Of a DNA stretch of 64,000 bases, positions 12,360 to 63,924 are shown piece after piece (positions within the stretch are counted from its first letter, which is position 1; each line of letters opens with the position of its first letter). Under the pieces are notes generated by a model. The model saw only the letters and a list, made by a program, of their open reading frames with translations. It made no database searches and had not been told where the DNA came from. Position numbers and translations under genes: made by a program. The stretch comes from Candidatus Sysuiplasma superficiale (GTDB lineage Archaea > Thermoplasmatota > Thermoplasmata > Sysuiplasmatales > Sysuiplasmataceae): contig JAGVSJ010000008.1 in assembly GCA_019720975.1 (NCBI GenBank), positions 1 to 64,000 of the forward strand, in the 5' to 3' direction.

Positions 12360-12902
12360 TCATTTTTCCCGGAAGATACAGTACCCGGCAGATACAAACC
12401 GATTCCCCTCTTTTGAGAAGAAGGCGATTTTTCCATCCGCTGCGTCGATGACGGCAGAAACGGCAAATGGCTGCCTGAACCATCTTTCATGGGTCCTTGC
12501 ATCTGTCAAAGACAAAAAACAGCCCTGCCCGGTGTGTGAATGAAACCAGCCAACGACAAAAGCACAGGATGACGCATCTTCAGTCACATCCTGCGGCAGC
12601 GGTAAAGGTGAGTCATGATTCACCTCCACATGATGCGCTGAGGCAATCACAGGCAGTCTGCATATACCCTGTACAATCGTTCTTATGGAATTCCCCAAAC
12701 GAGCCGGTTTGCCAAGAAGCAGCCCCATCGTCTCCTTCCCTTCCCTGAAGGATTGTATGGAATCGTGTAACATATGTTCAATGACTGTATCTCTGACAAA
12801 AACGGAGGCGTCTCTCTGGGAATCTATGCATTCGACAATGTTGCCGGGGCTATCGAGCTCCCCGATCACGAATTCACTACTCGCCACTATTCTTGTGCTC
12901 AT
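12360..12902 (-). CDS. JAMM/MPN+ metalloprotease (deubiquitinase-like)
   Basis: Zinc isopeptidase expected to remove the ubiquitin-like protein from targets. Numbering from the upstream GTG at 12911, the full JAMM set is visible: Glu60 in KETMGLLLG, then His124 and His126 in GWFHSHTGQGCFLSLTD, Ser134 and Asp137. The loop pattern HSH-x-G-x-GC-x-LS-x-x-D matches the form in eukaryotic Rpn11 and CSN5, including the Gly-Cys, rather than the simpler bacterial forms. The ATG at 12902 (three codons after the GTG) is preferred because AGGGTG sits 6 bases upstream. The gene overlaps the 3' end of the E2 gene by 26 bases. It is the last gene of the E1-Ub-E2-JAMM operon. Since the ubiquitin-like protein already ends in GG, deconjugation rather than maturation is the likely job. 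Proteasome association is unknown. Confidence 0.9.
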   Translation of the reverse strand: MSTRIVASSEFVIGELDSPGNIVECIDSQRDASVFVRDTVIEHMLHDSIQSFREGKETMGLLLGKPARLGNSIRTIVQGICRLPVIASAHHVEVNHDSPLPLPQDVTEDASSCAFVVGWFHSHTGQGCFLSLTDARTHERWFRQPFAVSAVIDAADGKIAFFSKEGNRFVSAGYCIFREK

Positions 12903-13365
12903 ATGCAGCACCCTGTGTCATGTATGAAACGGCCCGTCTGCAAATGTCGAACCCCAGCGGTTCACCGATATTAGGGTTCTCAATCAGGTGTGCTATGCCG
13001 GATATAAGTGAGTAGAGGGTGCGATCTGCCCTCCAGTCAAGCAGTATCCTTGTGCACACAATTCCCTTTTCTTCGGCTGGACTTATATTTGGATGAAATA
13101 TCGGTGTGAGCCATCTGACACTAGGCTTACGGATGGGATAATCTCTGTGTATCGTGACTTCAAAACTGTGAGTATTAGTCTGCCTGACTGTACCATCACC
13201 ATCAACAAGAAGCCCCACGGGTCCTTCAAGACTGACTGTGAGGATTACGGGAAAGGAGGCGGTCGCAACCACTGAAGGTGTGACGGTTATTCCGTTGATG
13301 GTTCTGCATATATCCATCTCCTTCTCAAGTCTCTTTCTAAGGAGCTCCAAAGGCAGCGGCATCAT
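12877..13365 (-). CDS. E2 ubiquitin-conjugating enzyme-like protein (UBC fold)
   Basis: 162 residues. E2 enzymes take the ubiquitin-like protein from E1 onto a cysteine and pass it to a lysine. Visible in family order: N-terminal helix LELLRKRLEKEMDICR; a beta-sheet ending in IHRDYPIRKPSVRWLTPIF; the HPN motif at 91-93; active-site Cys104 in KGIVCTRILLDW; Trp111; and a helix with IAHLIENPNIGEPLG. The catalytic Asn of HPN and the Cys 11 residues after it are kept, as in classical eukaryotic E2s, so the enzyme should be active. The start ATGATG overlaps the TGA of the ubiquitin-like gene. The N-terminus suits interaction with the E1. No E3 gene is visible nearby, so direct E2-to-substrate transfer is possible. 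Confidence 0.9.
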   Translation of the reverse strand: MMPLPLELLRKRLEKEMDICRTINGITVTPSVVATASFPVILTVSLEGPVGLLVDGDGTVRQTNTHSFEVTIHRDYPIRKPSVRWLTPIFHPNISPAEEKGIVCTRILLDWRADRTLYSLISGIAHLIENPNIGEPLGFDICRRAVSYMTQGAAYEHKNSGE

Positions 13366-13583
13366 CCACCTTCCGGGTCAGGAAGTATCTCTATAGTATC
13401 CCCATCCCCTATGTCGGCTTCGCCTACAGTCTTTGAAGCGGGTATGAGCCTCCTGCCCAACCTGAGGAGATATGGCTCACGTGCCATAGACCAGAATTCC
13501 ACTGCACTGTCCAGTATCTCCTGCAGTCTGGTGGATGAATCAACCTCAATCAGGGCAGTGTTTCCTGTCAGTGCATTCCTCAC
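13362..13583 (-). CDS. ubiquitin-like protein with C-terminal Gly-Gly
   Basis: At least 73 residues (start GTG at 13583, AGGA 5 bases upstream). The opening ALTGNTALIEVDSST matches the beta1-beta2 hairpin of ubiquitin (LTGKTITLEVEPSD), the helix RLQEILDSAVEFW follows, and RLIPASKTVGEADIGDGDTI corresponds to RLIFAGKQ... of ubiquitin. It ends ...PDPEGG, so the conjugating diglycine is already exposed. The only lysine, Lys51, falls where ubiquitin has Lys48. The GTG start would cut off most of beta-strand 1; the ten codons upstream (GVTTKIHRIT) are open, in frame with the E1 stop codon, and supply the expected strand, so the true N-terminus is uncertain. The TGA overlaps the E2 start. It could also be a SAMP-like or sulfur-carrier protein, but the E2 and JAMM partners argue for protein conjugation. 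Confidence 0.88.
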   Translation of the reverse strand: MRNALTGNTALIEVDSSTRLQEILDSAVEFWSMAREPYLLRLGRRLIPASKTVGEADIGDGDTIEILPDPEGG

Positions 13584-13613
13584 CGTTATCCTATGTATCT
13601 TCGTTGTAACACC

Positions 13614-14414
13614 TCACGTGTGATTGGGGCAAATAGGGCTGAATTGAACCTCCAGTTCGCTAAGAATACACGTTCTGCCATCATAGAGAAGAAGTGTTCC
13701 TTCCTTCCTGAGATGCGATACAATCTTGACGGCTTCAAGTGACTGGATTGAGCCGACAATCCCTGCAACAGCCGGCTCCGAAGGAATCCGCCTCGAAGGA
13801 AAGGAGGCTTCCCTTCCTCCGCAGCTGTATTCGCTATCCACAGAATCCATGTGAGAGCCGTTGAGAGTGCATTCGTAACAAGCTGTCCGTGGGGGCAGAA
13901 CAACCTGTATCCTGCCATTGAGACCATCTATCCCGCCATCGATGTAGGGGATACCGGCGTAATAACAGTTCGAATTCAGGTGGAGCCTTGTTCTGATAGA
14001 ATCGACGCATCCTATTACAACAGAAAAGCGGGAGAAAAAGGTGTGATCCAGCGTGGTGGCGTCCATAGGAAAGCACTCCACTGAACAGTCCGGATTCAGA
14101 AGCCTGGCCCTTGAAGAAGCCGCCTCTGCCTTGGATCTGTGCGTTTCTGCATCACTTCTGTCAAAGAGGAAACAGCGGCCAAGGTTTGTGTAATCCACTC
14201 GATCGCTGTCAACCACAGTCATCAGAGAAGGTGCATACAGTGCAAGATTCTTTATAACTTCATTGCCCAGGGCCCCTGCACCGACTACGCATATTCTCGA
14301 GGAACGTATCCCGCCGAAATCCAGCTCCCTGATGAGCCTGATGCGCGAATATCTGTCTTCACTGCTCCGTATATGCGGCTGCTCTTGCAACACTGGAGAG
14401 GATAATGTATCCAT
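13614..14414 (-). CDS. E1-like ubiquitin-activating enzyme (ThiF/UBA superfamily)
   Basis: 266 residues; adenylates the C-terminal glycine of the ubiquitin-like protein and forms a thioester with it. Seen: nucleotide loop GAGALGNEVIKNLAL (45-59), VVDSDRVDYTNLGR (acidic and Arg ATP contacts, Arg80), Lys95, CVDS (Asp138), zinc ligands CYEC (179-182) and CPNH at the end, and Cys198 in the segment YSCGGREASFPSRR before GIVGSIQSLEAVK. Its place between the zinc CxxC and the conserved helix matches the catalytic Cys of Uba3-type E1s. MoeB/ThiF/UbaA-type activity is the alternative, but the operon with E2 and JAMM favours a true E1. ATG at 14414 has no clear ribosome site and a box A-like element at 14455-14463, shared with divergent trpS. 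The stop is in frame with the next gene. Confidence 0.9.
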   Translation of the reverse strand: MDTLSSPVLQEQPHIRSSEDRYSRIRLIRELDFGGIRSSRICVVGAGALGNEVIKNLALYAPSLMTVVDSDRVDYTNLGRCFLFDRSDAETHRSKAEAASSRARLLNPDCSVECFPMDATTLDHTFFSRFSVVIGCVDSIRTRLHLNSNCYYAGIPYIDGGIDGLNGRIQVVLPPRTACYECTLNGSHMDSVDSEYSCGGREASFPSRRIPSEPAVAGIVGSIQSLEAVKIVSHLRKEGTLLLYDGRTCILSELEVQFSPICPNHT

Positions 14415-36414: not shown

Positions 36415-36601
36415 GCGGGTTCTGCATCATCAACCTTGCCATTTGAGCCAGTTACTGAAATGCTGCTCTCATGATGAAATGTTCGCCGCTGCCGGAGTGA
36501 AATACCCGCTGATGAGGCATTATTCAGTAGGGTAGTGCATGCTCAAACCTCAACCTGACAAACCATTTATCAGATGCAACACCATCACCAGAAGAGGGCG
36601 A

Positions 36602-38725
36602 ATGATGCGTCCGGGAAGAAACTCCGTATTGATTGACAATAGCATGTTCAGAAAGATAACATCACCGTGCAGCGCTGCGGTAATCGGGGCAAGCGATACG
36701 GCAGGAAAGATTGGAAACATGATGCTGACATCTCTCATAGAATACGGTTACAGGGGAAGACTGTATCCTGTGAACCCGAAATACAGAAAGGTTGTCGGGC
36801 TCACCTGCTACAGCTCCATCCGGGATGCAACGAAGGCGAACAACGGCCCGGTTGAAATGGTGTACATTGCTTTACCTGAGGAGTCCGTCGCTGATGTGGT
36901 AAAGGAGTGCATTGAGAATGGTGCGGGCATTGTGGTAATACTTTCACCTTCAACTGACACATCAGTCAGAGTGGATGAAACTGAAAAGGACTTACTGAAA
37001 ACTGCCATATCTTCAGGGACACTTATCCTTGGACCCAACTGTCTTGGTATCTACAGCCCCTCCGGTGGTCTGAGCTTCAGTCCCCGGCTCAGCCGCAAGG
37101 ACGGGAAGATCGCATTCATATCGCAGAGCGGCTCCATGTGCGAACTTTTTGTCCTTTCCATGCAGGACAGGGGACTGGGAGTTGGTACCGCCATCAGCAC
37201 AGGTAATGAGTTAATGGTATCCGTCGAGGATCTTATCGCACCAGTGGTTGAATTTTCCGGTGCCGAGGTCGTTGCGATCTACGCAGAGCAGATCAGATCG
37301 CCACAGAAATTCATTGATCAGTGCAGGAAAATCTCATCCTATTCCCAGGTCGTCGTTTACAAGGCTGGTAATACTGAGTCGGGGAGAAGAGCAGCTATGT
37401 CCCATACCGGTGCGATAGCGGGAATGCCTGAGGCATATTCGGCGATATTCAAGAAGGCCCTGGCTGCTGAAGTGAGAAGCTACGATGACCTTGTCAGCAC
37501 GGTGACGGCTTCTGCACTTTCGCGCAGTATATCGGGCAGAAGAGTGGGGGCAATTTCAGCGCCCGGCGGTCTTTGCGTGACGCTATCAGACGCTCTTGAA
37601 AGATACGGTTTCTCTCTCCCTGAAATCGATGAGCCCCTGGCGCTAAGGCTTGGAGAAATACTCGGCAGGAGCAGCGCACTGAGAAATCCGCTGGACCTTA
37701 CCATGTCTGCCATATCAAATATAAGGCTCTATGGTGAAACATGCAGCGAATTTGCACGATCCGGCCTATTCGACTTCATCGTCGTGGGTGCGCCGACCTC
37801 TTTCTCGATCGCACCATTCGTGGAAGAGATGAAGAGGGTAACTGGTGAAATCAGCATTCCGTTATGTGTCGTCTGGCAGGGAGATGATCCCGGTGTCAGA
37901 GATGGACTGAGAATGCTCAATTCAGCGGGAATACCTGTTTTCGGCTCGCCCGAATCGATTGCTTCCTCAATCGACAGGCTGCTGAAGATCAGGAAACGGA
38001 GCAGTCGGCAGCAGAATGAGAATCCTGTATTCGATGATGTCGGAAGAGCGAACGCAACTGAAAGAACCGGCGATCGTGGCAGATGGCTATCTGTTACGGA
38101 GATCGCAGCTCTGCTTTCCGCGCATCACATTGTAAACTTTGAAGAGAAGCCTGTCAGCGATATTGATGCCGCGATTGAGTTCACGGCATCAGGGAGTTAC
38201 CCGTTTGTTCTGAAAAAACACTGGGAGGGGCTTACGCACAAATCTGCTCATGGAGCGGTCATAACAGACATATACAACACCGAAATGCTCAGAAAGGCGT
38301 GGGAGCAGCTTGAAAGGATCAGCGCTGACGGCGTTTGTGCCGGGGAGTATGTGACCATTACTCCACAGATCAAGGGAGGGATTGAACTTGCCATAGGCTC
38401 ATTCAGGGGTCCCGGGAACTGTGCTGTCATGATGTTCGGACTTGGAGGGACACTGATTGAGTACTGCGGCAGGAAATCCTTTGCACTTGCTCCTGTGTCC
38501 GATGCGGAGGCAGAAGAGTTAATAGAGGAATGCGGACTGGAGCAAATGTTCAGACTATCAGGTTCACAGAGATGGACGGAGATGAGTGCTGTCAGAGCGG
38601 CAATTACTGATTTCTCAAGGATGGTCGCATCGGAAGACAGAATACTTGAGATGGACGTCAATCCGCTGATATGCAGGGGAAGCGAATACTTTCCTGTCGA
38701 CGTGAAGATAATGGTTTCGGAATGA
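36602..38725 (+). CDS. acyl-CoA synthetase (ADP-forming), fused alpha-beta
   Basis: About 707 residues. Converts acyl-CoA, ADP and phosphate to acid, CoA and ATP; in archaea this is the energy-yielding step of acid formation. Order of domains: CoA-binding (AAVIGASDTAGKIGNMML), succinyl-CoA-ligase-like with LGPNCLGIYSPSGG and AFISQSGSMCELF, the phospho-His loop AAMSHTGAIAGMPEAYSAIF, then an ATP-grasp beta part with YPFVLKKHWEGLTHKSAHGA, MMFGLGGTLIEYCGRKSFAL and EMDVNPLICRG. The catalytic His is present. The start is taken at the ATG pair at 36602, after GAGGG and a TTTATC box; the longer frame from 36539 lacks signals. Acetate versus branched or aryl acids cannot be told. Confidence 0.87.
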   Translation: MMRPGRNSVLIDNSMFRKITSPCSAAVIGASDTAGKIGNMMLTSLIEYGYRGRLYPVNPKYRKVVGLTCYSSIRDATKANNGPVEMVYIALPEESVADVVKECIENGAGIVVILSPSTDTSVRVDETEKDLLKTAISSGTLILGPNCLGIYSPSGGLSFSPRLSRKDGKIAFISQSGSMCELFVLSMQDRGLGVGTAISTGNELMVSVEDLIAPVVEFSGAEVVAIYAEQIRSPQKFIDQCRKISSYSQVVVYKAGNTESGRRAAMSHTGAIAGMPEAYSAIFKKALAAEVRSYDDLVSTVTASALSRSISGRRVGAISAPGGLCVTLSDALERYGFSLPEIDEPLALRLGEILGRSSALRNPLDLTMSAISNIRLYGETCSEFARSGLFDFIVVGAPTSFSIAPFVEEMKRVTGEISIPLCVVWQGDDPGVRDGLRMLNSAGIPVFGSPESIASSIDRLLKIRKRSSRQQNENPVFDDVGRANATERTGDRGRWLSVTEIAALLSAHHIVNFEEKPVSDIDAAIEFTASGSYPFVLKKHWEGLTHKSAHGAVITDIYNTEMLRKAWEQLERISADGVCAGEYVTITPQIKGGIELAIGSFRGPGNCAVMMFGLGGTLIEYCGRKSFALAPVSDAEAEELIEECGLEQMFRLSGSQRWTEMSAVRAAITDFSRMVASEDRILEMDVNPLICRGSEYFPVDVKIMVSE

Positions 38726-45100: not shown

Positions 45101-45193
45101 GGGCTCATGGTCTAGTGGTTATGACGTCGCCTTGACATCCCTGATAAAGGGTCGAAACGGCGGAGGTCTCCGGTTCAAATCCGGATGAGCCCA
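45101..45193 (+). tRNA. tRNA-Val (anticodon GAC) with 20-base intron
   Basis: Acceptor GGGCTCA pairs with TGAGCCC and A is the discriminator base; the T arm is CTCCGG-TTCAAAT-CCGGAT in outline; the anticodon stem TCGCC/GGCGG holds TTGACA...C. An intron of 20 bases at 45138-45157, after position 37, forms a canonical bulge-helix-bulge: TTGA pairs with TCGA, the bulges are CAT and AAC, and the intron hairpin is CCC/GGG around TGATAAA. Spliced length 73, CCA not encoded. Confidence 0.93.
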
Positions 45194-53786: not shown

Positions 53787-56504
53787 GTGAGAGATGTGGG
53801 TAACAAGGCAGAGATCCCTTCTGAAGCTGTCTTGAAAGACGGAACGCTGATAGAGGTACGTGTTGCAGGCAGGCCAGAGGACGAAATGCTTCAGGAATTT
53901 CTGAATGAAATGAAGTCAGAGGTTTCTGTGCTTCATTACTTCGTAAATGCCGAAGGCAAAGATGAACATACCGTAACAACCGATTCGGAGAAGCAGGTTG
54001 TGATTGTCGGGCTCAGAAGCGGAAGGATAATTGGTGCCTCTTTTTTCAGAGTGTTTGCCGGCAACAGGGCTGAAATTGCGCTTCTTGTTTCAAAGGACGT
54101 TCAGGCACTCGGCGTAGGAACAATACTTCTTGGACAGGCTATTGAGATGGCCAGCAAAATGGGAATAATGGAAATGAATGCATTTGTACCTTCAGAGAAC
54201 AGGAGGATACTGGACATCATCAAGAGCGCGGGTATTCCCGTAGCGCTTGCAGTGGAAAACAAAAATGTGATAGCTACCTTTCCAACATCCATGCTGCCCG
54301 AATTTCTGGAAAGATATGAAAGAAGGGAAGCAATAGCAACTTCGGAAGCACTGAGATATTTTTTCGAGCCGAAGACCATAGCCGTTATTGGAGCATCCAG
54401 GTACAGGAACACCATAGGCGGTGAATTGTTTCACAACATCATTGATTCTGGATTCACAGGGACAGTCTTCCCCGTGAATATAAACGCAACTTCTGTTCAG
54501 TCTGTTGCTTCATATAAATCGGTGATGGACTGCCCTGGAAACGTGGATATGGCCATAATTGTTGTCCCTGCGAAATCAGTTATTCAGGCCGCAGAAGAGT
54601 GCGCAAGAAAGGGTGTCAGAGCAATTGTTGTCGTGAGTTCGGGTTTTTCCGAAACAGGCACTGAGGGGATGGAGAGACAGAAGGAACTGACAGATCTCTG
54701 CAGGAGTTCCGGACTACGGATGATCGGGCCGAACTGCATGGGCCTTGCGAACACAGATCCTAGTTTCAGCCTCAATGCACAGTTCAGCCCGCAGACAATT
54801 AGAAGAGGTGAGATTAGTTTTCTGTCACAGTCAGGGGCACTGGGGATTGTCACTATAGACTTAGCCAACAAACTTGGAATAGGAATGGCAAAATTTGTTT
54901 CTGTTGGAAATAAGGCAGACATATCCGGAAATGACCTGATAGAATACTGGGAAAATGATGAAGGGACGAAGATCATATTGCTCTATCTGGAATCGTTCGG
55001 CAACCCCAGAAAATTTTCACGCATTTCAAGGAGGGTTGCAAGGAAGAAACCAATTGTAGCTGTGAAGAGCGGACGTTCTGCGGCCGGTTTCAGGGCTACC
55101 CAGTCTCATACCGGAGCACTACTTGCTGCATCAGATGTCACGGTAGATGCTCTCTTCCGTCAGGCGGGAATAATCCGGGCAGAAACACTTCAGGAGATGT
55201 TTGACGTTGCCACAATACTTGCCAGCCAGCCAGTTCCGCGCGGTAGAAGGGTAGCGATAATCACAAATGCAGGGGGTGCAGGCATACTTGCGGCCGACGC
55301 ATGCGAATCATACGGAATGGAAGTACCCGAACTTTCGCCAGATGTGCAGGAATCATTGAGGAAATTTCTGCCTGCCGAAGCTGCTGTGAGAAACCCGGTT
55401 GACATGACAGCAAATGATGTACCTGGCGGATACCTAAATGCCATAAAGACTGTTGCGGGTGGCAACATGGTTGATGCCATCTATGTGATTTACGTTCCAG
55501 CGATATCTGTCGATCCCGGCCGAGTTGCACGCGAGATTAATGAAGCCGCTTCTTCTCTGAAGGGCAAGATAACAATTGTAGCCAACTTCATGGCTTCAAG
55601 GGGTCTCGCAAATGAACTTTCCGAACCCTACGACAGCCAGCCTGCTGAGACGGTAAGGATACCTTCATATCCCTTTCCTGAGGATGGTATCAAGGCACTT
55701 TCTCTCGCGGCATCTTATGGGGAGTGGCTTTCTCTGCCTGATGAGCCTCCCGCCGTATTCACAGACATAAGAAGAGAAGAGGCGGCATACATACTCTCCG
55801 GCGATGACGCAGCCGAAAACGACGGCTGGCTGTCTCAGGACAGTGTCAGAAAGATCCTTGAATGCTACGGAATTGCTCAGGCAGGAAGCGCTCTGTGCAA
55901 TTCTCCCGAGGAGGCAGGAAATGAGGCCGGAAGGATGGGCGTGAAGGTCGTGCTCAAAGGAATTGCCCATGGTCTGGTTCACAAGACTGAAGCCGGTGCC
56001 GTCGTTGTAGGCCTTGAAGGTAGACAGAATGTAGCCGAATCTGCAAGGAATATGCTGAAAAGGCTTCAGGATGCAGGCTACTCAGGAGTAAAGTTCCTGG
56101 TACAGGAGCAGATTGAAAACGCCGTAGAAATGTTCATCGGTGTGACAAACGACGGTAATTTTGGCCCTGTTATAGCCTGCGGTGCAGGCGGCATAATGGT
56201 CGAACTCATCAGAGATGTTGCAGTGAGTCTTACTCCTCTCTCTAGACACGACGCGGAGAAGATGCTGAAATCGCTCAAAACATACAGGCTGCTCTCTGGT
56301 TTCAGGGGCGGACCGACATACGATACAGATTCGTTGACCGAAATGATCCTGAGGCTCGGCAATCTTGTGGAGGATTTTCAGTCAATATCCGAACTGGACT
56401 TCAATCCGGTTATGGTAAAACAGAAAGGCGGAGGGGCGTTCGTCGTTGATGCCAGGATCAGAATAACTCCGCGCAGAGAAATGCCTTACGTCGGAATAAG
56501 GTGA
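53787..56504 (+). CDS. GNAT acetyltransferase fused to ADP-forming acyl-CoA synthetase (Pat-like)
   Basis: 905 residues. The first ~190 are a GNAT domain (RAEIALLVSKDVQALGVGTI, GQAIEMASKMGIMEMNAFVP, acetyl-CoA site Q/G-x-G-x-G), followed by an ACD part: KTIAVIGASRYRNTIGGELF, MIGPNCMGLANTDPSFSLN, FLSQSGALGIVTIDLANKLG and RATQSHTGALLAASDVT (phospho-His present), then an ATP-grasp module with VVLKGIAHGLVHKTEAGAVV, VIACGAGGIMVELIRD and ELDFNPVMV. In Salmonella Pat the GNAT lies at the C-terminus and the ACD is inactive; here the GNAT is N-terminal and the His is kept. It may acetylate proteins such as acetyl-CoA synthetase (541) and sense CoA species. Start GTG 53787 follows GAGGAA. Confidence 0.85.
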   Translation: MRDVGNKAEIPSEAVLKDGTLIEVRVAGRPEDEMLQEFLNEMKSEVSVLHYFVNAEGKDEHTVTTDSEKQVVIVGLRSGRIIGASFFRVFAGNRAEIALLVSKDVQALGVGTILLGQAIEMASKMGIMEMNAFVPSENRRILDIIKSAGIPVALAVENKNVIATFPTSMLPEFLERYERREAIATSEALRYFFEPKTIAVIGASRYRNTIGGELFHNIIDSGFTGTVFPVNINATSVQSVASYKSVMDCPGNVDMAIIVVPAKSVIQAAEECARKGVRAIVVVSSGFSETGTEGMERQKELTDLCRSSGLRMIGPNCMGLANTDPSFSLNAQFSPQTIRRGEISFLSQSGALGIVTIDLANKLGIGMAKFVSVGNKADISGNDLIEYWENDEGTKIILLYLESFGNPRKFSRISRRVARKKPIVAVKSGRSAAGFRATQSHTGALLAASDVTVDALFRQAGIIRAETLQEMFDVATILASQPVPRGRRVAIITNAGGAGILAADACESYGMEVPELSPDVQESLRKFLPAEAAVRNPVDMTANDVPGGYLNAIKTVAGGNMVDAIYVIYVPAISVDPGRVAREINEAASSLKGKITIVANFMASRGLANELSEPYDSQPAETVRIPSYPFPEDGIKALSLAASYGEWLSLPDEPPAVFTDIRREEAAYILSGDDAAENDGWLSQDSVRKILECYGIAQAGSALCNSPEEAGNEAGRMGVKVVLKGIAHGLVHKTEAGAVVVGLEGRQNVAESARNMLKRLQDAGYSGVKFLVQEQIENAVEMFIGVTNDGNFGPVIACGAGGIMVELIRDVAVSLTPLSRHDAEKMLKSLKTYRLLSGFRGGPTYDTDSLTEMILRLGNLVEDFQSISELDFNPVMVKQKGGGAFVVDARIRITPRREMPYVGIR

Positions 56505-58255: not shown

Positions 58256-60001
58256 TCAATTCAAGTCTTTCGCAGTTCGATGAATGTCGATATACTTGCA
58301 CATACCTTCGACAAACTCGAAGAGATCTCCAACTATTCCAATATCTGCATATCTGAATATGGGTGCATCCTGCCTGCTGTTAACTGCCACCACCTTCCCA
58401 GCATACCTTATACCCACAACATGGTTATCCTGACCTGAAATACCAAGCGCTATGTAGAGACCTGGGGAGATGGATGTTCCTGTAAGGCCGATCTGCTGCT
58501 GCCGCGGAATCCAGCCTGCATCAACAATAGGTCTGGTTCCACCTACTGCCGCACCGAGACGTTCGGCAAGAGGTAGGATCTTCCTGACATTTTCACTGCC
58601 TCTGAGCCCGCGACCCAGTCCAATCACTATGTTGCTCCCGTGCAACGGCCTGTACGTTCCATCCACAGGGATGTGGCCTGTACGGCGCACCTTTACGGCA
58701 CCATTCGCCTTGAGAGTGCTCACAATCATCCGATGTGTGCCCGTACCCTTTCGCCTCCTGAGCATCCCCTGACGAACTGTGGCCATTTCCGGTACCGTCC
58801 TCGATGTAATTGAGGCAACTATACCTCCCCCAAAGGCAGGTTTGTACTGAAGCAACCGTCCTTCAGCGAATCTCAAATCTATGCAATCGGCAGTCAGTCC
58901 CAGTCCGGTTCTTGCCGCAATTGAAGGTGCTATTTCCCTTCCGTCGACGGTTGAAGGCAGAATGATACATCGTGGTTTTCTGTTCAGGACCTCTGATGCT
59001 ATGGTGTCGGCAATCAATTCGTTTTCGCTGCAGTCGATATATTCATACTCGTGGCAGAGGAGATCATTCAATTTCCCTGGCTCAATGTTGCCTATAATCC
59101 TGACCCTGAAACCATTCTCAAGAGCGATTTCTGAAAGCTTTGACGCTATCTCATAGGCGGTCTGGACATCGTTAAGGGCCACGCCCCACAACTCCTCCTT
59201 TCCGCAATCCGGTGGAAGATGAAGTTCTTCAGCTTCAGCGGGCACCGATCCTTCAGCCAATTCCAGAACGCACCTGAAAGCCTCTTCCCCCATGTTTAAA
59301 AATCTTACCTTTCTGTAGTTGCTCACAGCCTCCGTACCCATGACTACTGTCGGGGAATCTGCACCTCCAACTTCACATTGCAGTTTCGACGAGTCAAGAA
59401 AGCGTACCCTTTCCTCAAAATCAGGGGATGGTGGCAGAGGCATTCTTGCCCTGTTGATCTTTTCACTCACTGAGAGTACTGCCGGTAGATCCATCTCGAA
59501 CAAAGACATGCCGTCCTCCCGTTCCTGCTCCACGCTGACAGCCTGTCCGTCCCTGATGAATTCGATCTTCGTGACGGCTGATTTGAAAGGGTATCCGATG
59601 ATCGTCGCGATCTCCGGAGGGACCTGGGATGTTTCGCCGTCAAGCGAATATTTTCCGGCCAGAACCAGATCCGGCTTAATCCCGGTTATGAATGAAGAAA
59701 GAACACGGGCAGTAATGTATGTATCGGCACCCGCGAATCTTCTGTCTGAGATTACATATCCCCGGTCTGAACCCATCCTCAGTGCCTCGACAATGACGTC
59801 CTTTGAGGCGGGCGGTCCCATAGTCACTGCGATTACCTCCCCACCCATCTTTTCCTTTATCCTCACCGATTCCTCTATCGCCTTGCGATCGAACGAATTC
59901 ATAAGCAGTGGAACGCCTTCCCTGCGTATTCTCAGAGTGGACGGATCCAGCTCTATCCTGTTGACGTCTGGTATCTGCTTTACGAGAACAACTACTTTCA
60001 T
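58256..60001 (-). CDS. etfBA: electron transfer flavoprotein, fused beta-alpha (EtfBA)
   Basis: 581 residues. N-terminal ~260: EtfB (MKVVVLVKQIPDVNRIELDP, GVPLLMNSFDRKAIEESVRI, ALRMGSDRGYVISD, LAGKYSLDGETSQVPPEIAT). After a linker: EtfA with IILPSTVDGREIAPSIAART, then GHIPVDGTYRPLHGSNIVIG and FAD domain GAAVGGTRPIVDAGWIPRQQ, QIGLTGTSISPGLYIALGIS, DAPIFRYADIGIVGDLFEF. Carries electrons from acyl-CoA dehydrogenases or other flavoproteins. The fused form occurs in Thermoplasmata-like archaea. The 5' end overlaps the Rieske gene by four bases; no FixC/X genes are near, so the Rieske protein may be its redox partner. Confidence 0.92.
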   Translation of the reverse strand: MKVVVLVKQIPDVNRIELDPSTLRIRREGVPLLMNSFDRKAIEESVRIKEKMGGEVIAVTMGPPASKDVIVEALRMGSDRGYVISDRRFAGADTYITARVLSSFITGIKPDLVLAGKYSLDGETSQVPPEIATIIGYPFKSAVTKIEFIRDGQAVSVEQEREDGMSLFEMDLPAVLSVSEKINRARMPLPPSPDFEERVRFLDSSKLQCEVGGADSPTVVMGTEAVSNYRKVRFLNMGEEAFRCVLELAEGSVPAEAEELHLPPDCGKEELWGVALNDVQTAYEIASKLSEIALENGFRVRIIGNIEPGKLNDLLCHEYEYIDCSENELIADTIASEVLNRKPRCIILPSTVDGREIAPSIAARTGLGLTADCIDLRFAEGRLLQYKPAFGGGIVASITSRTVPEMATVRQGMLRRRKGTGTHRMIVSTLKANGAVKVRRTGHIPVDGTYRPLHGSNIVIGLGRGLRGSENVRKILPLAERLGAAVGGTRPIVDAGWIPRQQQIGLTGTSISPGLYIALGISGQDNHVVGIRYAGKVVAVNSRQDAPIFRYADIGIVGDLFEFVEGMCKYIDIHRTAKDLN

Positions 60002-60318
60002 GGTATTTCGACCATTATGTCCTCTCCTTCTATCTTAACCCTGTAAGTCTTTAGAGGAGTCGCCTCTCCTCCATCCTGAGGAGGCGAAATCACTTCTCCC
60101 GTAGCAGGGCTGTAGGTAGCGAAATGAAAGCCGCAGACTATATTGCCATCCTCAAGGGTGCCGGACGAGAGATCATCATTCTCGTGGGTGCATCTCAGCG
60201 ACGTCGCGTACAGATTGTTCCCTGAGCGGATGAGAAGTATCTCCTTGCCGCCAACCTCAGCTCTCAAAAGTCCGCTCTGATTTATGCTGTTCAGTTGCGC
60301 TGCTCTGTACCAGGTCAT
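59998..60318 (-). CDS. Rieske [2Fe-2S] ferredoxin-like protein
   Basis: 106 residues. Soluble Rieske domain with ligands CTHE (Cys, His) and CGFHFATYSP (Cys, His), spaced about 20 residues apart as in NirD/biphenyl-dioxygenase-type ferredoxins. No membrane anchor. It overlaps the EtfBA start by four bases (ATGA), so they are translated together, and follows folE after 54 bases. The close coupling suggests electron transfer with the flavoprotein; which way is unknown. Confidence 0.88.
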   Translation of the reverse strand: MTWYRAAQLNSINQSGLLRAEVGGKEILLIRSGNNLYATSLRCTHENDDLSSGTLEDGNIVCGFHFATYSPATGEVISPPQDGGEATPLKTYRVKIEGEDIMVEIP

Positions 60319-60371
60319 AATTCAAGCTATCTGTTCTAAATATAAAGAGTTCAGTGCAGTGACCGCTGTAT

Positions 60372-60935
60372 TCATTCAAGTAATCTGAGGGCCTCCTCCT
60401 TTGTCTCCGGATGGGTTTCGAAACTGCCTCTGATGGCACTTGAAAGCGTTTCTGAACGTATCGACTTTGCGCCTCTCATTTCCATGCACATATGGCGCGC
60501 CGTGACAAGCACCATGACCCCTTTCGCGTTGAGTTTGGTATGAAGAAAGTCTGCAAGTTCCGCCGTCAGCCTTTCCTGGACCTGAGGTCTTGAGGAAAAG
60601 AACTTGACGGTGCGCGGTATCTTGGAAAGACCAACTATCCTGTCTCCAGGAATATAGGCTATGGACACATGCCCAAAGATGGGAAGAAGATGATGCTCGC
60701 ACATTGAATAGAACGGGATGTCTCTGATTGCGATTATGTCGTGATAGCCCGGATTCTTGAATGAAGTCATTCTGGGTTCATTTTTATCATCGAGTCCAGA
60801 GAACAGTTCCGAATACATTCCGTAAACCCTTCTCGGCGTATTCCTGAAAACTTCTGTATTTTCATCAACCCCGATCTCACGGAGAATCGTTCTGACCGCT
60901 TCTTCTATTCTTGACTGTGATCTCGAACTTTTCAT
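60372..60935 (-). CDS. folE: GTP cyclohydrolase I (FolE type)
   Basis: 187 residues. Converts GTP to dihydroneopterin triphosphate. Seen: MCEHHLLPIFGHVSIAYIPG with zinc Cys and the catalytic His pair, GLSKIPRTVKFFSSRPQVQE with the Q-x-x-Q-E-R-L core, and ARHMCMEMRGA (second zinc Cys). This is the classical bacterial/eukaryotic FolE, not the MptA type of most archaea. Divergent from the pteridine-reductase-like gene at 61142, 207 bases away; the region between is the likely control point. Confidence 0.93.
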   Translation of the reverse strand: MKSSRSQSRIEEAVRTILREIGVDENTEVFRNTPRRVYGMYSELFSGLDDKNEPRMTSFKNPGYHDIIAIRDIPFYSMCEHHLLPIFGHVSIAYIPGDRIVGLSKIPRTVKFFSSRPQVQERLTAELADFLHTKLNAKGVMVLVTARHMCMEMRGAKSIRSETLSSAIRGSFETHPETKEEALRLLE

Positions 60936-61141
60936 ATTGATGCACCGTCTGCATTAGTGATTGCAGCCTGCCTATCTCCAGTATCACATTCGTTATATCC
61001 CTTTCCATGTGTTCAGGTCGACAGGGCAGCGGGCCGGTCTCCGGGTGGAGCAGATCTTCAGATCGGCGAGGCAGCAGACCAGGTTTGTCGTACTTGTATG
61101 GTGACTGATGGATTTAAGTTGAACCGCATACATTCATCCTC

Positions 61142-61891
61142 ATGGATAAACTGAAGGGGAGAAGAGCGCTAATCACTGGTGGCGCAAAGAGAGTGGGAAG
61201 AGCCATAACCACCGCACTTTCGAACGAAGGAGTTGAGGTGGTCATACATTATAACAGATCTGACAGGGAAGCGATCGAACTCAGATCGGCCATCGAGAAG
61301 GGCGGAGGCAAGGCTTGGACTGTGAGGGAAGAATTCACAGACATGGATTCAGCGGACAGACTCATGAGGTCAGTGAATGAAATGGCCGGACCGGTTGACA
61401 TACTTGTGAACAGCGCCTCATCATTTCCCGAGCGCTTACAGAGAGAACCGCTGAAGAATGAGTTTGAATCGATGATGAATATAAATGCCGCCATTCCCTG
61501 GAGACTCGCGCATCTCTTTTCGCAGCAGACTGCGGGGGGTGACATAATAAACTTACTTGACACCAGGATTTCTGGCCACGACCTTGGAAGGACAGCATAT
61601 TTTCTCAGCAAACAGATGCTGCGACATCTCACAGAGGAACTGGCACTGGGCCTTTCGCCACGTATAAGGGTAAATGCGATAGCTCCTGGACTTGCGCTGC
61701 CACCTGCTGGCAAGGGGATTGATTACTTTGAAAAACTCAAAGAGGAGGTACCTCTCCGTAGATACGGAAAACCCGAGGATATTTCAGATGCACTTATATT
61801 CCTGCTGAAACAGGAATTCATCACAGGTCAGATCCTTTTCATCGACGGCGGGCAGCATCTCACCGGGAAGATTTACGGAAAAACTGTCTGA
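61142..61891 (+). CDS. short-chain dehydrogenase, pteridine reductase (PTR1/FolM)-like
   Basis: 249 residues. SDR with NADP(H)-type N-terminal ALITGGAKRVGRAITTALSN (TGGxxRxGxxI, as in PTR1/FolM), VNSASSFPERLQREPL (matching the NASSFYP part of pteridine reductases), and catalytic Tyr and Lys in TAYFLSKQM. Pteridine/dihydrofolate reductase activity is the reading favoured by the neighbouring folE, folB and folK; a general 3-oxoacyl reductase role is the alternative. ATG has no strong ribosome site. A TATA-like TTTAAG lies about 30 bases upstream. Confidence 0.8.
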   Translation: MDKLKGRRALITGGAKRVGRAITTALSNEGVEVVIHYNRSDREAIELRSAIEKGGGKAWTVREEFTDMDSADRLMRSVNEMAGPVDILVNSASSFPERLQREPLKNEFESMMNINAAIPWRLAHLFSQQTAGGDIINLLDTRISGHDLGRTAYFLSKQMLRHLTEELALGLSPRIRVNAIAPGLALPPAGKGIDYFEKLKEEVPLRRYGKPEDISDALIFLLKQEFITGQILFIDGGQHLTGKIYGKTV

Positions 61892-61924
61892 GATGTGCCC
61901 ATGAGTAACCGGTCTCACTGCAAA

Positions 61925-61937
61925 TGTATTTAATTTC
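61925..61937 (+). promoter_or_regulatory. TATA-like element before folB
   Basis: TGTATTTAATTTC would start transcription near 61958, ahead of the ATG pair at 61969/61972 that follows AGGGG. This speaks against the ATG at 61924 as the folB start. Confidence 0.45.
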
Positions 61938-61968
61938 AGGACATTCTCACCTGAACCGCAAGGGGCAG

Positions 61969-62361
61969 ATGATGTTAGGCAGTGACAACTGTGAGGAGAA
62001 TTCGATCATCATAAGGGAGCTCAGATTGCGCTGCATTGTCGGAATCAACGAACATGAGAGACACCAGAAACAGGATGTCCTAATCAGCCTGGAGCTGTGG
62101 ACAGATTTCAAAAAGGCCGTTGAAAGCGATTCAATCGAGAATGCCGCTGATTACAAATCGCTGACCAAAGAGATCATAACGAAAGTAGAAGCATCGAAAT
62201 ATTTCCTCGTTGAGACACTGGCTGACATGGTGGCGCGCATATGTCTTTCGAGGGAAAACATCAGAAAGGTATTGGTGGTTGTCGAGAAGCCCGGAGCACT
62301 CAGATTCGCATCTAGCGTCGGAGTTCGAATAGTCAGAAGCAAGTCTGATGCCAATGACTGA
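61969..62361 (+). CDS. folB: dihydroneopterin aldolase
   Basis: 130 residues from ATG 61969 (second ATG 61972). Cleaves 7,8-dihydroneopterin to hydroxymethyl-dihydropterin and glycolaldehyde. Seen: IIRELRLRCIVGINEHERHQ (Glu), VLISLELWTDFKKAVESDSI, AADYKSLTKEI, and VVVEKPGALRFASSVGVRI with the catalytic Lys. Bacterial FolB family, distinct from MptD/MptB enzymes. The end overlaps folK by 14 bases. Confidence 0.92.
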   Translation: MMLGSDNCEENSIIIRELRLRCIVGINEHERHQKQDVLISLELWTDFKKAVESDSIENAADYKSLTKEIITKVEASKYFLVETLADMVARICLSRENIRKVLVVVEKPGALRFASSVGVRIVRSKSDAND

Positions 62362-62878
62362 TGTATATCTTTCACTGGGATCCAATGTCGAACCGGAACT
62401 GAATATAGTGAAGGCGCTTGAAGAACTCAACAAGATATTGGAGATAAAAAAGGTATCAAACGCATACAGGACAAAACCTGTTGACGGGCCTCCGCAGCCT
62501 GATTACTGCAACCTTGTAGTGCTTGCAGAAACAGATATTGACCCGGGAGAGCTGAAATTCTCATACCTCAGGGAGATAGAAAGAAAGCTTGGAAGGTCGA
62601 GGTCTGCCGACAGATATGGTCCCAGAACAATAGATATTGATATAATAATTTACGGTGATTCATGCATAGATAGCGACGAAATGCGTATTCCGGATCCTGA
62701 CATATATACAAGATCCTTCCTTGTGCTGTGCCTCTATGAACTGTCACCGGAGCTCAAGGTACCTTGCGCCTCCCTTGATATCGGCAAGCTTGTGACCAGG
62801 ATAGACAGAAAGGGACTGGTGAAGCTTCCGGCTCTCTCACATGAAATCAGGAAATTTGTTCAATCCCACAAATGCTGA
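62348..62878 (+). CDS. folK: hydroxymethyl-dihydropterin pyrophosphokinase
   Basis: 176 residues. Transfers pyrophosphate from ATP to 6-hydroxymethyl-7,8-dihydropterin. Seen: DVYLSLGSNVEPELNIVKAL, PVDGPPQPDYCNLVVLAETD, LGRSRSADRYGPRTIDIDII (ATP/Mg loop, D-x-D), IPDPDIYTRSFLVLCLYELS. Both the ATG at 62348 and the ATG two codons on fit. Overlap with folB suggests coupled translation. The next enzyme, FolP, is not in the window. Confidence 0.94.
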   Translation: MPMTDVYLSLGSNVEPELNIVKALEELNKILEIKKVSNAYRTKPVDGPPQPDYCNLVVLAETDIDPGELKFSYLREIERKLGRSRSADRYGPRTIDIDIIIYGDSCIDSDEMRIPDPDIYTRSFLVLCLYELSPELKVPCASLDIGKLVTRIDRKGLVKLPALSHEIRKFVQSHKC

Positions 62879-63135: not shown

Positions 63136-63924
63136 TTGCCTCCAAGTCGTAAGATCAACTGTCCGGCATGCGGATTCTCGATAAGCGCAACAGCCAAAAC
63201 ATGTGATTTCTGTGGATATGAACTAAACGCATCCCTGACCGGTTCGGATAATGAACAGGCTCATGTTACTGAAACAGAAAAGAGCACGTCAAAACGAAAC
63301 GGGCAGTCTGATCAGATTAGGGCGGCCAGCGGAAGGAGAAACGGAGAGAGAGAAAAGGCACAGGCGCCAAAGGCAGAGACTGCAGCTGGAGAGAGCAACG
63401 TCGCGACTGTCAGACCTTCAGGTAATGCTTCTGCGGCTCCAGAAATCGATCCGGAAAAGAGGATCAGGGAGCTTGAAGCCCAGCTTTCTGAAGCAGAAAA
63501 GGAACTTGATGTCATATCCAAAATACTGGCTGAAGGCAGCACATCGGCGGCACAGTCGAAACCCGTTGCGGAATCGAAGGGTGTGACTGCCCCTGCTGTC
63601 ACCATGGGCAACCCGAACCTGCCTGAACCTGTCAGAAGAGGGAAAATTGATGCTGAGAGGGAAGCTGGGAAGTTGGCCGGCGCCCCGCCAGCAGGGGATG
63701 AAGAGAAATCAGGAATGGCCGGTCTGCGGTTTACTGCAAAGGCGAAGGCACTTTTGCCGATAATTGCCGGCGCAGTCATATATGGCATTTCCTTTGCATT
63801 TCCTGCACAGCTCGGAAGCACCGAGCAATACTTTTTAGCCGTGACCGGTTCTGTTCTAGTCGCCACAGGCATATTTGCATCAATTGAACCGGTCGGCACC
63901 AGCCAGGGCAGAACCCCGGCGTGA
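63136..63924 (+). CDS. zinc-ribbon, coiled-coil, two-helix membrane protein
   Basis: 262 residues from TTG 63136, the start supported by the box A. N-terminal ribbon INCPACGFSISATAKTCDFC (CPxC and CxxC), a long low-complexity and charged linker, a coiled coil EKRIRELEAQLSEAEKELDV, and two C-terminal hydrophobic helices (LLPIIAGAVIYGISFAFPAQ and FLAVTGSVLVATGIFASIEP). The ribbon would be cytoplasmic. A similar kit of parts in reverse order occurs at 22133. Function unknown. Confidence 0.6.
   Translation: MPPSRKINCPACGFSISATAKTCDFCGYELNASLTGSDNEQAHVTETEKSTSKRNGQSDQIRAASGRRNGEREKAQAPKAETAAGESNVATVRPSGNASAAPEIDPEKRIRELEAQLSEAEKELDVISKILAEGSTSAAQSKPVAESKGVTAPAVTMGNPNLPEPVRRGKIDAEREAGKLAGAPPAGDEEKSGMAGLRFTAKAKALLPIIAGAVIYGISFAFPAQLGSTEQYFLAVTGSVLVATGIFASIEPVGTSQGRTPA

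What the first reader, a model, noticed from the sequence alone, without database searches (positions are those of the whole stretch)
60372..62878. Bacterial-type pterin/folate genes in an archaeal chromosome
FolE (with MCEHHLLP), a PTR1/FolM-like reductase, FolB and FolK stand together. Most archaea use MptA/MptB/MptD/MptE instead. It suggests synthesis of a bacterial-type folate or tetrahydrobiopterin-like cofactor, probably by gene transfer. FolP and FolC are not in the window.
Basis: partly seen in the sequence, partly recalled or inferred. Interest (0 to 1): 0.5.

Follow-up and report, generated by a model that had tools for sequence, protein, structure and literature searches.

The report
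Archaeal folate pathway with bacterial genes
One family of archaea has lost the usual archaeal enzyme that starts pterin synthesis and instead carries a block of bacterial-type folate genes, which probably feeds its older folate-assembly enzymes.

Summary
FolE stands back to back with SDR-FolB-FolK at the stated place, and all 8 sampled genomes of the window's own family (two genera) keep this layout. In 150 genomes of the class, FolK and FolB (over cut-off) occur in exactly these 8. FolE occurs in 17. The archaeal first enzyme MptA occurs in 128, but in 0 of these 8; MptD also in 0 of 8.

FolP and FolC are elsewhere in the genome. FolP is class-wide, so the bacterial-type front end feeds an older back end. 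DHFR (FolA) is absent from all 150 genomes. The SDR has the pteridine-reductase marks (TGX3RXG, Asp, YX3K), so it may make the tetrahydro form. No biopterin-dependent hydroxylase was found (0 of 8).

Three results complicate the simple folate reading. The archaeal kinase MptE is kept alongside FolK. "FolB" groups with FolX, the monapterin epimerase. Vibrio plasmids carry the same four functions as a folK-folX-folE-folM cluster.

Gene transfer is likely from the distribution, but no donor was found and the FolE tree does not prove it. The parts are known; the combination is a lineage-specific variant.

The parts
60372..60935 (-). FolE, GTP cyclohydrolase I (type IA), 187 aa
   Evidence: TIGR00063 204.3 bits (cut-off 181.6), PF01227 222.2 bits; C79, H81, H82 and C150 invariant in the family alignment A1
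60936..61141 (.). Divergent intergenic stretch between FolE and the SDR-FolB-FolK run; probably holds both promoters (inference)
   Evidence: gene layout
61142..61891 (+). Pteridine-reductase-like SDR (PTR1/FolM/PruA type), 249 aa
   Evidence: TGGAKRVG (TGX3RXG), NLLD, YFLSK; T12, G13, R17, G19, D140, Y153 and K157 invariant in 8 of 8; best solved relatives are pteridine reductases (2.8e-48) and FolM 5tgd (9.4e-46)
61924..62361 (+). FolB/FolX-superfamily protein (dihydroneopterin aldolase or epimerase), 145 aa
   Evidence: PF02152 104.5 bits; best solved relatives FolX 4aey and 1b9l; groups with FolX 100/99; E45, Y77, E97 and K122 invariant
62348..62878 (+). FolK, HPPK-type pyrophosphokinase, 176 aa; start overlaps the end of FolB
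   Evidence: TIGR01498 111.2 bits (cut-off 54.1); RTIDID motif; Asp in place of E. coli His115 in 8 of 8
59998..60318 (-). Rieske-type ferredoxin, 53 bases after FolE on the same strand
   Evidence: PF00355 1.8e-15; next to FolE in 7 of 7 family genomes whose contig runs on past FolE
58256..60001 (-). Fused electron transfer flavoprotein (beta+alpha), overlaps the Rieske gene by 4 bases
   Evidence: PF01012, PF00766; same position in the 7 family genomes where it can be seen
63136..63924 (+). Zinc-ribbon membrane protein of unknown function, conserved neighbour after FolK; role in the pathway not claimed
   Evidence: found in 7 of 8 family genomes; the contig of the eighth ends about 0.6 kb after FolK; no family over its cut-off

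Best explanation
This archaeal family makes tetrahydrofolate by a hybrid route. Bacterial-type FolE makes dihydroneopterin triphosphate from GTP in place of MptA. After dephosphorylation by an enzyme I did not identify, the FolB/FolX-like protein makes 6-hydroxymethyl-dihydropterin. FolK, perhaps with the kept MptE, pyrophosphorylates it. The class-wide FolP and the genome's FolC make dihydropteroate and dihydrofolate. The PTR1/FolM-like SDR makes the tetrahydro form, because no FolA was found. Shown: gene presence, conservation, layout, distribution, motifs. Inferred: every enzyme activity, the order of steps, the SDR as dihydrofolate reductase, and acquisition by gene transfer before the two genera split.
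For: Cluster in 8 of 8 family genomes. FolE 8 of 8 and MptA 0 of 8. FolK and FolB (over cut-off) in exactly these 8 of 150. MptD 0 of 8. FolP 8 of 8, and 91 of 91 good genomes of the class. FolC 8 of 8, 7 over cut-off. DHFR 0 of 150, with the control Haloferax volcanii found. No beta-RFAP synthase over cut-off in the family: the weak hit in the window's genome is a homoserine kinase, so a methanopterin end product is unlikely. The SDR motifs match those given for pteridine reductases in PMC1971073 and PMC13259868 (passages read). PMC13259868 reports that a P. aeruginosa homologue works best on dihydrofolate. PMC1971073 lists Parachlamydia with FolM and no FolA.
Against: MptE is kept in 8 of 8, so FolK is not simply a replacement. 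FolB is nearer FolX than FolB, and FolX is a very slow aldolase (PMC1971073). DHFR and MptD are also missing in other families of the class that lack this cluster, so other enzymes can do those steps. The SDR misses the NCBIfam equivalog cut-offs (202 of 281, 166 of 288). The pABA genes, the DHNTP phosphatase, ThyX/ThyA and PTPS-type enzymes were not searched.
Confidence: 0.6

Rival explanations
1. The block is a transplanted reduced-pterin module of the tetrahydromonapterin kind: FolE, FolX, FolM and a FolK-like kinase. It makes a second reduced pterin. Folate is made with MptE, and FolE became the only GTP cyclohydrolase after MptA was lost.
For: FolB groups with FolX at 100/99. The SDR has FolM/PTR1 marks. 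Three Vibrio plasmid loci carry folK-folX-folE-folM and Salinivibrio has folM-folX. MptE is kept in 8 of 8.
Against: No biopterin-dependent hydroxylase in 8 genomes, and MptD absent in 8 of 8, so an aldolase for folate would still be missing. FolK of the family does not group with the Vibrio cluster FolK. The FolB of the family keeps the KPGA and SVG letters of E. coli-type FolB where the FolX rows have KPHA or KLHA and SVS.
Confidence: 0.22
2. The genes are old in the class and were lost everywhere else; no gene transfer.
For: The AU test does not reject one clade of all archaeal FolE in the sample (p 0.16). The four genes' GC is 0.448-0.495 against 0.495 for the window, so no recent import shows.
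Against: FolK and FolB over cut-off occur in 8 of 150 genomes, all in one family of 28, which would need very many losses. Family FolE is up to 50% identical to bacterial FolE but 33-41% to the other FolE of the class.
Confidence: 0.12
3. FolE serves mainly the tRNA base archaeosine (7-deazaguanine pathway), and the three other genes do something else.
For: FolE also starts the deazaguanine pathway (established knowledge), and MptA is gone.
Against: FolE is fixed next to SDR-FolB-FolK in 8 of 8, and FolP and FolC need a pterin supply.
Confidence: 0.06

Closest known systems
Bacterial de novo tetrahydrofolate pathway (FolE, FolB, FolK, FolP, FolC, FolA)
   Same: FolE, FolB-superfamily protein, FolK, FolP and FolC are all present
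   Different: No FolA; a PTR1/FolM-like SDR in the operon; MptE kept; FolP class-wide, with about 120 extra residues at the N-terminus of the own copy
Gammaproteobacterial folK-folX-folE-folM cluster (Vibrio plasmids)
   Same: Same four functions in one place
   Different: Order and strands differ; identities to V. pelagius are 38% (FolE), 25% (FolM), 38% (FolX) and 31% (FolK); different FolK clade
Archaeal pterin route MptA/MptB/MptD/MptE
   Same: MptE is present in 8 of 8, and the product before FolP should be the same
   Different: MptA and MptD absent in 8 of 8; MptB not searched
Sulfolobus acidocaldarius (control genome)
   Same: FolB, FolK and MptE found over cut-off, MptA not found
   Different: No FolP, FolC or MptD found there, and a beta-RFAP synthase hit. 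FolE is listed, but one of the 11 controls is under the cut-off and the tool does not say which

Membership tests
FolE (GTP cyclohydrolase IA) | Scores over the equivalog cut-off TIGR00063 | tested here: met
   204.3 against 181.6 bits
FolE (GTP cyclohydrolase IA) | Zinc and catalytic residues (CEHH and the second Cys; roles recalled) | tested here: met
   C79, H81, H82 and C150 invariant in 8 of 8
Pteridine reductase (PTR1/FolM/PruA) | TGX3RXG and YX3K motifs (PMC1971073, PMC13259868) | tested here: met
   present in 8 of 8
Pteridine reductase (PTR1/FolM/PruA) | NCBIfam equivalog cut-offs (PRK09134, PRK09135, PRK06483, TIGR02685) | tested here: not met
   202 of 281, 166 of 288, 108 of 249, 114 of 321.7 bits; so it is called pteridine-reductase-like, not FolM
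Pteridine reductase (PTR1/FolM/PruA) | Reduces dihydropterins or dihydrofolate | not testable with these tools
   needs an enzyme assay
FolB (dihydroneopterin aldolase) | FolB superfamily (PF02152) | tested here: met
   104.5 against 31.8 bits
FolB (dihydroneopterin aldolase) | folB equivalog cut-off TIGR00525 | tested here: not met
   68.8 against 72.15 bits
FolX (epimerase) | FolX equivalog cut-off PRK11245 | tested here: not met
   102 against 152 bits
FolX (epimerase) | Groups with FolX in a tree | tested here: met
   100/99 with 3 gammaproteobacterial FolX against 32 other rows taken as FolB; few FolX sampled
FolK (HPPK) | Equivalog cut-off TIGR01498 and the two Mg-binding Asp (recalled) | tested here: met
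   111.2 against 54.1; D96 and D98 invariant
FolK (HPPK) | His at the position of E. coli His115 | tested here: not met
   Asp in 8 of 8; His in 34 of 36 bacterial rows, no motif match in the other 2, Vibrio and Halomonas. So it is not a strict family mark
Complete bacterial folate pathway | FolP and FolC in the genome | tested here: met
Complete bacterial folate pathway | FolA dihydrofolate reductase | tested here: not met
   PF00186 0 of 150
Complete bacterial folate pathway | pABA synthesis (PabA/B/C) and DHNTP phosphatase | not tested
Tetrahydromonapterin/biopterin cofactor for aromatic hydroxylation | Biopterin-dependent hydroxylase | tested here: not met
   PF00351 0 of 8
Methanopterin pathway | beta-RFAP synthase | tested here: not met
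   no family genome over cut-off; the hit in the window's genome is homoserine kinase

The most novel reading that the evidence does not exclude
A whole bacterial reduced-pterin module (FolE, FolX-like, FolM-like, FolK) was taken up before the two genera split. It displaced MptA and MptD. It now gives this archaeal family two linked pterin outputs: tetrahydrofolate, with the FolM-like SDR as its only dihydrofolate reductase, and a second reduced pterin made through the FolX-like epimerase. That would explain why both MptE and FolK are kept.
Probability: 0.25. Interest if true: 0.6.

Novelty: new variant of a known kind. Interest (0 to 1): 0.42.

Why it matters
It is a clean case of an essential archaeal pathway whose front end was swapped while the back end stayed: among 150 relatives, this family lacks MptA and MptD and has a bacterial-type block fixed in their stead. 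It offers a candidate answer to how an archaeon without FolA reaches tetrahydrofolate, which can be tested with one purified enzyme. The kept MptE beside FolK asks directly whether two pterins are made.

Tried and rejected
Methanopterin as the product: rejected, because no family genome has a beta-RFAP synthase over cut-off and the weak hit in the window's genome is homoserine kinase. Biopterin cofactor for hydroxylases: not supported. Full replacement of the archaeal route: rejected, because MptE is kept.

A recent import shown by base composition: not seen. Viral carriage: two scans of viral contigs with FolB and FolK found no relative. A single bacterial donor of the whole block: none of the 80 best FolE loci shows SDR-FolB-FolK next to FolE, though many of those contigs are short. 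In the FolK and SDR trees the family stands alone.

Three origins of FolE in the class (families f1 and f9, and genus g29 of f17): the trees separate them, but the AU tests do not reject joining them (p 0.16, 0.38, 0.20), so this is not claimed.

Papers: three looked-up papers, on MptD/MptE, on archaeosine and on FolX/FolM, are not held, so what they say is not used. The literature searches listed no paper that describes this cluster in this group by its title or the start of its abstract; subscription journals are mostly not covered, so this is weak evidence of novelty.

Rows dropped or mis-cut: L034 (FolE fragment) was left out of the FolE trees. One FolB row (L149, 35 aa) was dropped. One search cut five FolB-FolK fusions to the wrong half, and one search replaces it. 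In one search the row L127 was cut from a 318 aa frame and has a branch of about 10, so it is unreliable. One search used 62 of the 98 rows.

Full report
What is there. FolE (60372-60935, -) stands back to back with a run of three genes, SDR (61142-61891), FolB (61924-62361) and FolK (62348-62878), all on +. FolK starts inside the end of FolB. FolE, FolB and FolK match their Pfam families well over cut-off. FolE and FolK also pass NCBIfam equivalog models: TIGR00063 at 204.3 of 181.6, and TIGR01498 at 111.2 of 54.1. FolB misses the folB model narrowly (68.8 of 72.15) and the FolX model clearly (102 of 152).

Conservation. The genome sample holds 8 genomes of the window's own family, in two genera. 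All 8 carry FolE facing SDR-FolB-FolK. Where the contig allows it to be seen, FolE is followed by a Rieske ferredoxin and a fused electron transfer flavoprotein. Identity to the window is 75-90% for FolE, 40-61% for the SDR, 52-62% for FolB and 43-52% for FolK. So the block is fixed and old in this family, and not an assembly error.

Distribution over 150 genomes of the class (28 families, 63 genera). FolE 17: 8 of 8 in the own family, 5 in one genus of family f17, 4 in family f9. FolK 8, all in the own family. FolB over cut-off 8, all in the own family; two more weak hits lie under the cut-off. MptA 128, with 0 of 8 in the own family and also none in the five f17 genomes with FolE. MptD 110, with 0 of 8 in the own family; the f17 and f9 genomes with FolE keep it. 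MptE 140, including 8 of 8. FolP 140, including 91 of 91 genomes of good quality. DHFR 0. MptD is also absent from several other families of the class, so its absence alone is not special.

The back end. FolP is in the own genome on contig C13 and FolC on C90. FolC was found in 8 of 8 family genomes, 7 over cut-off; the eighth is a partial match in a frame of 183 aa. FolC outside the family was not searched. Beta-RFAP synthase hits in the family are far under cut-off, and the one in the own genome is a homoserine kinase at 311 bits. A folate, not a methanopterin, is the likely product.

The SDR. It has TGX3RXG, an Asp at the place of the usual catalytic Ser, and YX3K, in 8 of 8. In the alignment with Trypanosoma pteridine reductase these positions line up (residue roles partly recalled). 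PMC1971073 and PMC13259868 (passages read) give TGX3RXG as the mark of pteridine reductases. PMC1971073 notes that folM-like genes cluster with pterin genes; its authors predict that such genes make reduced pterins rather than folate. PMC13259868 reports that the P. aeruginosa homologue is most active on dihydrofolate. With no FolA in the class, this SDR is the best candidate in this family for making tetrahydrofolate. The rest of the class lacks FolA without this cluster, so another solution must exist there.

Complications. First, MptE, the archaeal counterpart of FolK, is kept; the own copy has intact-looking SDMDGD and HFHGDN stretches (their role is recalled). Second, FolB groups with FolX in a tree of 43 rows (100/99) and its best solved relatives are FolX, but the sample holds only 3 FolX, all gammaproteobacterial. 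Third, three Vibrio plasmid loci carry folK-folX-folE-folM. The four-function block is therefore known in bacteria and may be a monapterin module. Against a direct descent, the family FolK does not group with the Vibrio cluster FolK, and identities are 25-38%. Fourth, FolK has Asp where E. coli has His115 in 8 of 8, against His in 34 of 36 bacterial rows.

Origin. The best bacterial FolE relatives are Clostridia and others at up to 50% identity, higher than the 33-41% to the other FolE of the class. The family FolE is one clade on a long branch. The AU test does not reject all archaeal FolE of the sample as one clade (p 0.16). None of the 80 nearest FolE loci carries SDR-FolB-FolK beside it. 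Transfer from bacteria is inferred mainly from the distribution of FolK and FolB. An archaeal go-between cannot be excluded: the control Sulfolobus acidocaldarius has FolB and FolK, and I could not fetch its sequences.

Taxon. The window holds archaeal genes such as an eIF2-gamma-like protein and a Kae1-like protein (names recalled from sequence). I take the class to be Thermoplasmata, from recall only.

Verdict. The parts are known; the set is a new variant.

Noticed in passing
window 12360-14414 (-): A run of ThiF/E1-like (PF00899 5.8e-47), a 73 aa protein ending in GG, an E2-like protein (PF00179 2.7e-15) and a JAB protease (PF01398 1.8e-8): it looks like a complete ubiquitin-like conjugation set in an archaeon.
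   Followed up: partly
window 58256-60935 (-): FolE, a Rieske ferredoxin and a fused electron transfer flavoprotein form a tight same-strand run, conserved in the family. Why FolE is tied to electron-transfer genes is unexplained.
   Followed up: partly
L001:1426-2592 (genome contig C13): FolP has about 120 residues before the DHPS domain with no Pfam or NCBIfam match; many FolP frames in the class are of similar length.
   Followed up: no
G034, G052, G088, G102, G115 (loci L040-L044): One genus of family f17 has a FolE 38-41% identical to the window's, no MptA, but keeps MptD and MptE: a swap of the first step only.
   Followed up: partly
window 62348-62878 and family FolK in L028-L035: All 8 family FolK proteins read PDPDI where most bacterial FolK read PHPR, replacing the His that corresponds to E. 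coli His115.
   Followed up: partly
window 53787-56504 (+): A 905 aa protein with a GNAT acetyltransferase domain fused in front of an acyl-CoA synthetase (ADP-forming type); a second such synthetase without it lies at 36539-38725.
   Followed up: no
window 45101-45193 (+): ARAGORN reports a tRNA-like gene with a four-base anticodon (gaca); probably a false or intron-bearing call.
   Followed up: no
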